Origin: Hyphomonadaceae bacterium
GTDB taxonomy: Bacteria; Pseudomonadota; Alphaproteobacteria; Caulobacterales; Aquidulcibacteraceae
Direction: 5' to 3'
Assembly: GCA_016791385.1 (NCBI GenBank)
Contig: JAEUMR010000086.1
Coordinates: 1-47,798 of the forward strand
Length of the DNA: 47,798 bases
In this document: piece by piece, positions 44,937-47,444 of the stretch
How positions within the stretch are numbered: the stretch's first letter is position 1
Layout: the number at the start of each line of letters is the position of its first letter
Notes under the pieces: generated by a model
What the model was told of the DNA's origin: nothing
Databases searched by the model: none
What the model saw: only the letters and a program-made list of their open reading frames with translations
Position numbers and translations under genes: made by a program

Positions 44937-46007
44937 TCAGCTGAACTTCAGCTTCGTCACGTGGCCCATCTTGCGGCCGCCGCGCACATCGCGCTTGCCG
45001 TAAAGATGCAGCCGCACGTCCGGATCGGCGGCGAGCGCTTCCCAGGCGTTGGCGTCTTCGCCGATCAGGTTCAGCATTTCGATGCCCGCCACGCAATTTG
45101 TCGGCCCCAGCGGCCAACCGGCGACGGCGCGGATTTGCTGTTCGAACTGCGAGGTCAGCGCGCCTTCGATGGTCCAGTGGCCGGAATTGTGTACGCGCGG
45201 CGCCATCTCGTTGGCGACCAGCGAACCATCTGGCATGACGAAGAACTCGATCGTCAGCACGCCGACATAGTCGAACGCGTTCAGCACCTGCGTCACGGCA
45301 TGGCGCGCGGACTGGGTGACCTTGGCGTCCACGCGCGCAGGCAGCGTCGTGCGCGAGAGGATGCCGCCGGAATGTTCGTTTTCGCAGAGATCGTAAAACG
45401 CGATGGCGCCGTCCCAGCCACGCGCGGCGATGATCGAGACCTCGCGCTCGAACGCGCAGAAGCCTTCGAGAATGCCTGGCGCGCCGAGCTTCTCGTACGC
45501 GCCCGCCGCATCCGCGCCGCTGTTGATGCGGATTTGGCCGCGCCCGTCATAGCCGAGGCGGCGCGTCTTCAGGATGGCCGGCGCGCCGATAGCGGCGATC
45601 GCTGCATCGAGATCGGCTTGCGAAGCGATGGCGCGGAAGGGCGGGGTGGCGATGCCCATCGAGGCGAAGAAGCTCTTCTCGTCGAAGCGGTCCTGCGCGA
45701 TCGCCAGCGCGCGCGGATTGGGGGCAACGCGCGCGCCGGCCGCGATCAGCGCTTCGGCCGTCTGCGCCGGCACGTTCTCGAACTCGGTGGTGACGACATC
45801 GACGCGGCGCGCGAAATCAGCGAGCGCGGCGGTGTCGAGGTAGTTGCCGACCATGGTCTTCGCCGAAACCCGTCCGGCCGGGCTGTCGGGCTCATCGGTG
45901 AAGATGGCGACATCGAAACCAAGCTGCGCCGCCGCGATCGAGAGCATGCGGCCAAGCTGACCGCCGCCGAGAATGCCGATGGTCGAGCCCGGCGGAAGCG
46001 GCTTCAT
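44937..46007 (-). CDS. purK: N5-carboxyaminoimidazole ribonucleotide synthetase PurK
   Basis: PurK uses ATP and bicarbonate to carboxylate AIR to N5-CAIR in purine synthesis. This 356-residue ATP-grasp enzyme has an N-terminal [21 protein letters not shown] (residues 10-30), the central [20 protein letters not shown] loop, and [31 protein letters not shown], the catalytic signature of PurK. Its ATG overlaps the purE stop (ATGA, 46004-46007), so PurE and PurK are made in step. It is convergent with the tetR gene. Confidence 0.96.
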
Positions 46008-46501
46008 TTCGGTGTGTCAGCCACGGCGTCGGTGTTGGCTTGGCGATACGCATCGAGCCGCGCCGCCAGCGCCGTGTCGCTGAGCGCCAGGATCGAGGCG
46101 GCCATGATGCCGGCATTGGCCGCGCCGGCTTCGCCGATCGCCAGCGTGCCGACCGGCACGCCCTTGGGCATTTGTACAATCGAGAGCAGGCTATCGAGGC
46201 CTTTGAGTTCGCGGCTCTTCACCGGCACGCCCAGCACTGGCAGCGCCGTCATCGAGGCGGCCATGCCCGGCAGGTGCGCGGCCCCGCCGGCGCCGGCGAT
46301 GATCACCTTGAGCCCGCGCTCGCGCGCGCTTGTGGCGTAGTCGTAGAGGCGCTTGGGCGTGCGGTGGGCCGAAACGATCTTCGCTTCGTAACTCACGCCC
46401 AGCGCGTCCAGCACGTCGGCTGCGGCCTTGAGCGTTTCCCAATCGGACTGCGAGCCCATGATGAGCCCAACCAGTGCGCCGGATTTGGAATTCGCGGTCA
46501 T
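46004..46501 (-). CDS. purE: N5-CAIR mutase PurE (class I)
   Basis: PurE rearranges N5-CAIR to CAIR, acting right after PurK; together they mark the bacterial class I route. This 165-residue protein carries [57 protein letters not shown] and [27 protein letters not shown], all family signatures. The start at 46499-46501 gives a nine-residue lead (MTANSKSGA) before the first strand, and these codons form one arm of a 24-bp palindromic element (46472-46547). GGAG and the ATG both lie in its loop. The start cannot move inside: the next Met (15) is within the core strand. Confidence 0.96.
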
Positions 46502-46547
46502 TTGGGATCACGCTCCGTGCGAATTCCAAATCCAACAAGGCGCACTG
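46472..46547. repeat. Palindromic element A, overlapping the purE start
   Basis: The arm at 46472-46495 (CAGTGCGCC then GGATTTGGAATTCGC) is exactly complementary to GCGAATTCCAAATCC (46519-46533) plus GGCGCACTG (46539-46547), with only AACAA (46534-46538) bulged. This makes 24 bp of stem around a 23-nt loop. On the purE mRNA the loop holds the ribosome binding site (GGAG) and the start codon. Confidence 0.9.
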
Positions 46548-46559
46548 AACTCAAGGGTT

Positions 46560-46635
46560 CGCACGCGGCTTGTCCTTCGGAAATTCGATCGCGTTCTCCA
46601 TCACCCGCCGGCGAATTTCCGAAGGGCCGCGTGCG
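46560..46635. repeat. Palindromic element B, adjacent to element A
   Basis: CGCACGCGGC (46560-46569) and CCTTCGGAAATTCG (46574-46587) are exactly complementary to CGAATTTCCGAAGG (46612-46625) and GCCGCGTGCG (46626-46635), with TTGT (46570-46573) bulged and a 24-nt loop. Stem length, bulge, loop length and parts of the sequence match element A, 12 nt away. The rest of this 286-bp gap (46636-46787) holds no gene I can support; upstream of the cyclase gene there is a near match to a CtrA-type site at 46734-46748. Confidence 0.88.
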
Positions 46636-46787
46636 CGGGGTAGCCATGTGACGGCTGCTCCTAAAAAACGGCCCGATAAAGGAAGCCGCCGCGCCCGTCC
46701 AGCCCGATCGTTCCAGACGCGTGCAAGGGCCGGTTAATCCCGTCTTTACTCCAAGGGCGCATGCCTTCGGGGTAGAGGCGCATCCCT

Positions 46788-47444
46788 ATGGCGTTCGGCT
46801 TCGGCAAGGTCGCTCCCGAAACGAGCCAGCTCCTGACCGAGCTGGGCCTGTCTCGCCGCGACCTGACGCCGGCCGCTTTGGCGGCGCTGGAGCGACTCGC
46901 CGCCGAGCGCGATGTGCTGCGCGCCAAGCTCGAAGGCGCCGAAGCATTGGCGGATCGCGATCCGCTGGTTCCCGTCTCCAACCGCCGCGCCTTCCTGCGC
47001 GAGTTGCACCGGACCATGTCGGAGGTCGAGCGCTACAAGACGCCGGCCGCCGTCATCTATATTGATCTCGACGGCTTCAAAGCGCTCAATGACGGCTACG
47101 GCCATGCCGCGGGCGACGCCGTGCTGGCTCATGTCGGGCGCATGCTGCTCGACAGCGTGCGCGAGAGCGACATCGTCGGCCGTCTCGGCGGCGACGAATT
47201 CGGCGTCATTCTCAACCGCGCCACCGCCGAAGAAGCGCGCACGAAGGCGGCTTCGCTGAGCGAGGCGATCAATTCCGCCGCGATCCTCCATGCTGGCGTT
47301 GCTCACCGCATCCGCGCCTCGTTCGGCGTGCATGCGATCGCCATGGTCGAGGATCCCGAAACCGCGATCGCCCGCGCCGACGAGGCCATGTACGCCGACA
47401 AGTTCGCCCGCCGCGCCGAGGCGCAGGCCTTCTCCGCGTTCTAG
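46788..47444 (+). CDS. Diguanylate cyclase (GGDEF domain)
   Basis: It makes the second messenger c-di-GMP from two GTP. This 218-residue protein has a short helical N-terminus (residues 1-55, possible coiled coil LAALERLAAERDVLRAKLEGAEAL) followed by one GGDEF domain: DPLVPVSNRRAFLREL, IYIDLDGFKALNDGYGHAAGD, and the active-site loop GGDEF (134-138) with all residues intact. An RESD motif at 125-128 is the inhibitory I-site at the usual distance, so product feedback is likely. There is no sensor or membrane segment. It is transcribed away from purE. Confidence 0.93.
   Translation: MAFGFGKVAPETSQLLTELGLSRRDLTPAALAALERLAAERDVLRAKLEGAEALADRDPLVPVSNRRAFLRELHRTMSEVERYKTPAAVIYIDLDGFKALNDGYGHAAGDAVLAHVGRMLLDSVRESDIVGRLGGDEFGVILNRATAEEARTKAASLSEAINSAAILHAGVAHRIRASFGVHAIAMVEDPETAIARADEAMYADKFARRAEAQAFSAF

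What the first reader, a model, noticed from the sequence alone, without database searches (positions are those of the whole stretch)
46472..46635. Two tandem 24-bp palindromic elements, one forming the purE translation start
Seen directly: elements A and B each have about 24 bp of perfect stem interrupted by one 4-5 nt bulge and a 23-24 nt loop, 12 nt apart. In one frame of the purE-sense strand, A reads ExxRxVxxNxxEF ([14 protein letters not shown]) and B the same spacing (SEIRRRVMENAIEF), so they are related, not coincidental hairpins. Element A supplies the purE ribosome binding site, start codon and first eight or nine codons, with start and binding site exposed in the loop. This resembles palindromic elements inserted into genes in Rickettsia. 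It raises two ideas: a mobile palindrome has been recruited as a start region, and the fold may control purine synthesis.
Basis: partly seen in the sequence, partly recalled or inferred. Interest (0 to 1): 0.72.

Follow-up and report, generated by a model that had tools for sequence, protein, structure and literature searches.

The report
Mobile hairpin element captured purE's start
A short repeated piece of DNA that folds into two hairpins landed just behind the start of the purine-synthesis gene purE and now supplies that gene's start signal; a second gene in a related species shows the same kind of takeover.

Summary
The two hairpins are real (24 pairs each, 12 nt apart). They are the two arms of one element, not two separate insertions.

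In 25 genus relatives whose purE starts were read, none has the insert; 24 start 6-13 codons before the conserved PurE core. The window's species and one relative (G032) carry a 161/164-nt insertion right behind the old start, ATG GCT ACC CC. A covariance model built only from these purE hairpins found the same two-armed unit elsewhere: of 29 units analysed, 27 lie outside purE, in 12 other genus genomes. The arms co-vary strongly. The closest known family is the Caulobacter intergenic repeats (CIR).

The insertion shifts the frame. The old start now opens a 49-codon leader whose TGA overlaps the new purE ATG (ATGA). SD, ATG and the first ten PurE codons come from hairpin A. Both carriers keep the open leader, the ATGA and A's pairing, but not the leader peptide. 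I infer that purE is translated by coupling to the leader.

Second case: in G042 the same arm supplies the start of a methyltransferase gene (MANFKSGAL; Pur[11 protein letters not shown]).

Not supported: purine sensing, Rickettsia-element membership, other copies in the own genome.

The parts
46004..46501 (-). purE (5-(carboxyamino)imidazole ribonucleotide mutase), 165 aa, present start ATG 46501
   Evidence: NCBIfam TIGR01162 212.7 bits, cut-off 149.6; Pfam PF00731
46645..46662 (-). original purE start signal: AGGAG (46658-46662) and ATG (46645-46647)
   Evidence: same block in most genus relatives; 2 of 38 bases differ between window and G032 in the surrounding block, against 41 of 147 in the leader and 11 of 34 upstream
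46472..46636 (-). inserted two-armed element, net insertion 161 nt (164 in G032); end bases approximate because the ends have drifted
   Evidence: ATG-to-Val distance 176 (window) and 179 (G032) against 15 in L032; found in 2 of 30 genus genomes
46560..46635 (-). element B = arm 1 (hp1): 10 + 14 bp, 4-nt bulge on its 3' side, 24-nt loop
   Evidence: in G032 5 of 24 pairs are broken
46548..46559 (-). linker between the arms
   Evidence: 10-17 nt as parsed in the 29 units
46472..46547 (-). element A = arm 2 (hp2): 9 + 15 bp, 5-nt bulge on its 5' side, 23-nt loop
   Evidence: between window and G032 3 double compensatory changes, 1 G-U, 1 broken pair of 24
46498..46647 (-). 49-codon leader ORF from the original start through both arms; its TGA (46498-46500) overlaps the new purE ATG
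   Evidence: 50 codons and the same overlap in G032 with a 3-nt indel
46513..46516 (-). SD-like GGAG in the loop of A, 11 nt before the new ATG (G032: GAAGG)
46498..46501 (-). ATGA: new purE start overlapping the leader stop
46472..46501 (-). first ten PurE codons, encoded by the element ([10 protein letters not shown])

Best explanation
A and B are the two arms of one copy of a non-autonomous, two-hairpin repeat family of this genus (163-170 nt). A copy landed four codons into purE in the common ancestor of the window's species and G032. It shifted the frame, so purE was cut off from its native start. The native Shine-Dalgarno site and ATG still start translation, now of a 49/50-codon leader that runs through arm 1 and the 5' half of arm 2 and stops at ATGA. 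Shown by sequence: the insertion, its membership in the repeat family, the frameshift, the enforced new start in arm 2, the ATGA overlap in both carriers. Inferred: ribosomes translating the leader melt both stems, stop at ATGA and restart on purE, so purE is translated by coupling to the element-made leader. Direct initiation in the loop of A should be weak, because codons 3-10 are locked in a stem of about -41 kcal/mol. The peptide itself does not matter; the open frame, the overlap and the stem of A do. The same arm has captured the start of a second gene, a methyltransferase in G042, there without an ATGA overlap.
For: 25 of 25 genus relatives read lack the insert; 24 of 25 have an in-frame Met 6-13 codons before the PurE core. 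The insert is in 2 of 30 genus genomes by DNA search, one of them a single-contig genome, so it is no assembly fault. A model made only from the purE hairpins finds the same unit in other genomes. 29 units parse, 22 distinct, 96.6% of cells paired against 71.9% in column shuffles, maximum 75.2%. Arm 2 alone: 19 rows, 98.9% paired, covariation score 0.427 against 0.162, 0 of 500 shuffles as high. In-frame stop forces the new start; leader open and ending in ATGA in both carriers. Codon-position changes 16/14/11 in the leader against 16/11/74 in purE: no peptide constraint. Start block 2 of 38 changed, P 0.0005 at the leader rate. Second capture: 24 of 24 other MTase loci with a readable start lack the element, G042 has it with native ATG upstream and new ATG in arm 2.
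Against: No expression or ribosome data. A leader kept open by chance is not rare: P 0.26-0.29 after 41 random changes. Leader identity is weak and could follow from stem pairing. Compensatory changes could come from DNA-level palindrome correction instead of selection on RNA. Arm 1 is decaying in G032. In the G042 case the leader stops 51 nt before the new ATG, so coupling by overlap is not general. No other copy of the family in the own genome or, beyond weak hits, in G032.
Confidence: 0.72

Rival explanations
1. Tolerated scar: the element landed, purE survived only because its arm 2 happened to offer SD and ATG in the loop; ribosomes start there directly and the leader is an unused remnant.
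For: SD-like GGAG/GAAGG about 11 nt before the ATG in both carriers. The G042 methyltransferase must start from arm 2 without an overlapping leader. Leader peptide shows no constraint.
Against: Native SD and ATG block is conserved far beyond its surroundings (2 of 38 against 28%), which a dead start would not need. Codons 3-10 sit in a strong stem. ATGA overlap and open leader kept in both species.
Confidence: 0.3
2. Metabolite- or protein-controlled RNA switch: the hairpins sense purines and control purE.
For: Position over the start of a purine gene; stems kept by compensatory changes.
Against: The family sits next to unrelated genes elsewhere. Loops vary widely between units. No Rfam family at or near gathering score. 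Only 2 of 30 genus genomes have it at purE.
Confidence: 0.06
3. Protein-coding insert like the Rickettsia palindromic elements, read through in frame as part of PurE.
For: Palindrome inside a core metabolic gene; 10 PurE residues come from it.
Against: 161/164-nt insertion shifts the frame and the purE frame has a stop three codons before ATG. The G042 insert keeps frame but holds two stop codons in it.
Confidence: 0.02
4. The stems matter only at the DNA level (transposition substrate, or repeated correction of the palindrome by template switching); translation effects are incidental.
For: Arms co-vary across the whole family wherever it sits, so pairing is an element property, not a purE property.
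Against: In purE arm 2 keeps pairing while arm 1 decays in G032; co-location of changes P 0.008 for arm 2, 0.14 for arm 1.
Confidence: 0.25

Closest known systems
CIR, Caulobacter CcrM-associated intergenic repeats (described from passages of the review PMC2229807; the original 2003 paper was not held)
   Same: Alphaproteobacterial; two long inverted-repeat arms joined by a linker; TA at the ends; GANTC present in 25 of 29 units here.
   Different: About 166 nt against about 110; GANTC in 0 of 29 terminal loops, the place given for CIR; the review says CIR had not been found inside genes, this copy is. The purE copies have no GANTC.
RPE, Rickettsia palindromic elements (passages of PMC10969869 and PMC2229807)
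   Same: Palindromic repeat of similar length inside a core metabolic gene.
   Different: RPE keep the host frame and are read through; this one shifts the frame and replaces the start.
Enterobacterial RU-1/ERIC, RU-2, RU-3 (passages of PMC2759123)
   Same: Small mobile repeats that contribute N-terminal sequence to predicted proteins (RU-2 loci).
   Different: Those reports are ORF fusions; here a conserved core enzyme has lost its native start to the element, with empty sites in relatives.
Translationally coupled short upstream ORF, e.g. iraD (PMC5574718, title and abstract in a search listing only)
   Same: Short ORF whose translation governs the next gene.
   Different: Here the ORF and the overlap were made by a repeat insertion; coupling is inferred, not measured.

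Membership tests
CIR | two long stem-loop arms joined by a linker | tested here: met
   29 of 29 units parsed
CIR | length about 110 bp | tested here: not met
   163-170 nt in 29 units
CIR | GANTC at or in a terminal loop | tested here: not met
   GANTC in 25 of 29 units, 0 of 29 in a terminal loop; none in the two purE copies
CIR | sequence similarity to CIR1-CIR4 | not tested
   no CIR sequence was at hand; original paper not held
CIR | intergenic only | tested here: not met
   purE and MTase copies lie inside the original coding region; no coding-like frame runs through any of 27 other units
RPE | inserted in frame and read through | tested here: not met
   161/164-nt frameshifting insert with stop before the new ATG
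IS630/Tc1-type MITE | TA target duplication with terminal inverted repeats | tested here: inconclusive
   young G059 copies end TAGTGT...ACACTA, but two comparisons with G057 gave no clean empty site
IS630/Tc1-type MITE | matching transposase in a host with many copies | tested here: not met
   PF13358 (DDE_3) in 0 of 7 genomes, G059 and G057 included; other transposase types were not searched
Riboswitch or other Rfam RNA | match to a curated family | tested here: not met
   two matches only, E 0.55 and 0.69, far below gathering scores
Translationally coupled leader ORF | stop of the upstream ORF overlaps the start of the next gene | tested here: met
   ATGA in window and G032
Translationally coupled leader ORF | expression of the gene depends on translation of the leader | not testable with these tools
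   needs a reporter or ribosome profile

The most novel reading that the evidence does not exclude
The outward-facing arm of this two-armed family is a portable translation start: its loop can carry a Shine-Dalgarno-like CGGAG and an ATG, and its 3' arm an open frame (ANFKSGxL). When the element lands just behind a start codon it can take over initiation, which has happened at least twice (purE; a methyltransferase in G042). At purE it also turned the old start into a leader that now sets the translation of a core biosynthetic gene by termination and restart.
Probability: 0.4. Interest if true: 0.75.

Novelty: new variant of a known kind. Interest (0 to 1): 0.6.

Why it matters
Start codons of core genes are thought of as fixed. 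Here a small repeat moved in behind one, broke the frame and became the start itself, leaving the old start as a coupled leader. With 25 empty sites, two occupied species and a second gene captured in the same way, the origin of an overlapping leader/gene pair can be followed step by step. Gene callers may also miss this: PurE's true start lies in a repeat, and the old start opens an unrelated ORF.

Tried and rejected
Other copies in the own genome: none. BLASTN with A and with B gave only the element itself and weak partial matches that did not show the hairpin plan where I looked at them (15 such loci folded). The covariance model gave A, B and two hits at 15 bits. The held genome is 83% complete, so a missed copy is possible.

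Rfam: nothing. Programmed frameshifting from leader to purE: considered from the letters only; CCC AAA TGA (window) and CCC ACA TGA (G032) show no shared slippery run.

IS630-type transposase: 0 of 7 genomes. Target duplication: two sites compared between G059 and G057 were not clean (G059 has other repeats there), so left open. Range outside the genus: 150 genomes of the order gave hits in 5, four of the genus and G013; the G013 hit does not have the two-hairpin plan. That search used stricter filters and missed genus copies seen (for example G035), so absence elsewhere is not shown.

R1 also hits a different palindrome family (GGAACCCAGGG stem; L163, L165, L173, L195, L196), left out of the counts. 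Of 42 entries looked at were kept as units; 3 repeat the same copies, 5 are that other family, 2 (L156, L188) are truncated, 5 (L166, L167, L175, L176, L193) show no unit. Four further units (L199, L200, L204, L205) parsed later and 2 (L201, L202) did not; they are not in the 29. In the arm-2 count the number of further pair types did not exceed shuffles (23 against 22.0, 178 of 500), and that alignment had been padded with N to fit the structure. The purE set also includes the two purE rows.

One search used a badly cut query (arm 2 plus right flank instead of the whole unit); I use it only as a rough copy count. A notebook line gives '27 of 29' relatives without the insert; the right count is 25 read.

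Full report
What is there. On the minus strand upstream of purE (TIGR01162) lie two long hairpins, A (46472-46547) and B (46560-46635), each with 24 pairs, one 4-5-nt bulge and a 23-24-nt loop. The strand folds far better than shuffles (z -6.5). Nothing else in the window comes near the two-hairpin plan (highest score 30 of 48, element 48).

It is an insertion. I read the purE start region in 27 genus genomes (window, G032 and 25 others) and in 3 of other genera of the family. PurE was found in 29 of 30 genus genomes; for G041 and G053 no locus was fetched. All 25 other genus loci lack the element. In 24 of 25 an in-frame Met lies 6-13 codons before the PurE core, and AGGAG lies within 53 nt in 24 of 25 (the exceptions are L043, whose ATG is out of frame, and L036). 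The closest form is TTTTTTAGGAGCAGCCGAAAC ATG GCT ACC CCG CAG GTT GGG (L032). The window and G032 keep this block but have 161 and 164 more bases between ATG GCT ACC CC and the Val codon. A DNA search of all 30 held genus genomes finds the insert only in these two. G032 is a single-contig genome and its PurE is 84% identical, so the insertion is old and is not an assembly fault.

It belongs to a repeat family. A covariance model built from the inner hairpins of A and B of these two genomes alone found matches in 19 of 30 genus genomes at E up to 1. The weak ones are partly chance and partly another palindrome family. After reading the DNA, 27 units outside purE in 12 genomes show the same plan: outer arm 9, inner arm 15, loop, inner arm, 4-nt bulge, outer arm; linker; then the mirror arrangement. 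Lengths are 163-170 nt. G059 holds ten of these units, most nearly identical, so the family has spread recently there. Across the 22 distinct arm sets 96.6% of cells pair, against 71.9% (maximum 75.2%) when 3' letters are shuffled. For arm 2 alone the covariation score is 0.427 against 0.162 (0 of 500), and sliding the partner by one base drops pairing from 98.9% to 39-46%. One measure in that test, further pair types, did not exceed shuffles. So A and B are arms 2 and 1 of one copy.

Where the family sits. In 7 of 27 units a coding-like frame runs into the element and stops within its first 16 bases, four times on TAG and twice on TAA and once on TGA; no coding-like frame runs through any unit (composition criterion). 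Two of these neighbours tested are or may be real genes (a Mur ligase by Pfam; the other gave no match). The usual place is thus between genes; purE is an exception. No DDE_3 transposase was found in 7 genomes, copy-rich G059 and G057 included. Young copies end in TAGTGT...ACACTA, which recalls TA target duplication, but no clean empty site was obtained. How the element moves is open.

What the insertion did to purE. 161 is not a multiple of three. Translation from the native ATG (46647) now reads MATPRTRPFGNS... for 49 codons through arm 1, linker and the 5' half of arm 2 and stops at TGA 46498-46500. The first bases of that stop are the last bases of the new purE ATG: ATGA. PurE cannot start further up, as its frame has a stop three codons before. 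G032 has the same: 50 codons, a 3-nt indel in the linker that keeps the leader frame, ATGA again. An SD-like GGAG (G032: GAAGG) lies about 11 nt before the new ATG. PurE now begins [10 protein letters not shown] or MTANSNSGAQ, residues encoded by arm 2.

How it most likely works. Between window and G032 the leader changes equally at all codon positions (16/14/11 of 49 each), while purE changes mostly at third positions (16/11/74), so the peptide is not under visible constraint. But the native SD/ATG block is kept (2 of 38 changed, P 0.0005 at the leader rate), arm 2 keeps pairing through 3 double changes and one G-U with one broken pair (co-location P 0.008), and arm 1 does not (5 broken pairs, P 0.14). 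An open leader by chance is not rare (0.26-0.29 after 41 changes). The reading that fits all this is coupling: ribosomes from the old start melt both arms, end at ATGA and restart. A alone folds at -41.5 kcal/mol with PurE codons 3-10 in the stem, so direct initiation should be poor. This step is inferred. The main rival is direct initiation in the loop with a dead leader; the conserved native start speaks against it, the G042 case for it.

A second capture. In G042 a copy sits in the start of a methyltransferase gene (Pfam PF08241; below the BioC cut-off). Of 28 loci fetched for this protein from 30 genomes searched, 25 had a readable start: G042 and 24 others; the 24 lack the element and most begin with a short N-terminus such as MSDPALGPFEP. 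In G042 the native ATG ACC GAT CCC GCC is followed by the element; from it a 33-codon leader ends 51 nt before a new ATG in arm 2, after CGGAGG in the loop: MANFKSGALGPFEP. The purE copy reads [13 protein letters not shown]. The frame through the 3' arm is the same; the ATG differs by one codon. The two nearest relatives by this protein (G054, G058; 89%) are empty, so this one is young. There is no ATGA here, so capture of the start is the shared event and coupling by overlap is special to purE.

What it is called. By architecture it is closest to CIR of Caulobacter: two arms and a linker, TA ends, GANTC. I know CIR only through passages of a review (PMC2229807); the original was not held. Length (about 166 against 110) and GANTC position (0 of 29 in terminal loops, 25 of 29 somewhere, 21 of 29 at the linker by my reading) differ, and that review states CIR had not been found inside genes. 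I therefore call it CIR-like, not CIR. It is not an RPE: those are in-frame and read through (passages of PMC10969869). MITE-derived N-termini of predicted proteins are on record (RU-2, passages of PMC2759123). Ten paper searches in an open-licence library listed no report of a repeat capturing a core gene's start; the library lacks most subscription journals, so this is weak evidence of novelty.

The organism. An alphaproteobacterium. The named PurE relatives are distant (Hyphomonas 72%, Caulobacterales and Caulobacteraceae 73%), so the order is inferred only.

Noticed in passing
L033 and L042, between the purE start and the divergent gene: A different long palindrome (GTCATTCCGG...GGAACCCAGG...CCTGGGTT in L033; a related form in L042) sits upstream of purE in G056 and G039. 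The model R1 also hits this stem type elsewhere (L163, L165, L173, L195, L196).
   Followed up: partly
units L183, L154, L160, L162, L171, L174, L153: The ends of the element often supply the stop codon (TAG, TAA or TGA) of the neighbouring coding-like frame.
   Followed up: partly
29 units: GANTC, the CcrM methylation site as named in the review, occurs in 25 of 29 units, in 21 at the linker, across subfamilies with different arms.
   Followed up: partly
L153 and L205: Flanks of the unit in G045 and of the unit in G058 match at about 80%, so this copy seems to be kept at one place in two species.
   Followed up: no
L161 and L191: Units lie just upstream of frames that look like ZapE (35 nt by eye) and FabF (6 nt by eye); names are from recall, no family search was made.
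   Followed up: no
window 46788-47444: The gene divergent from purE is a GGDEF (diguanylate cyclase) protein.
   Followed up: no
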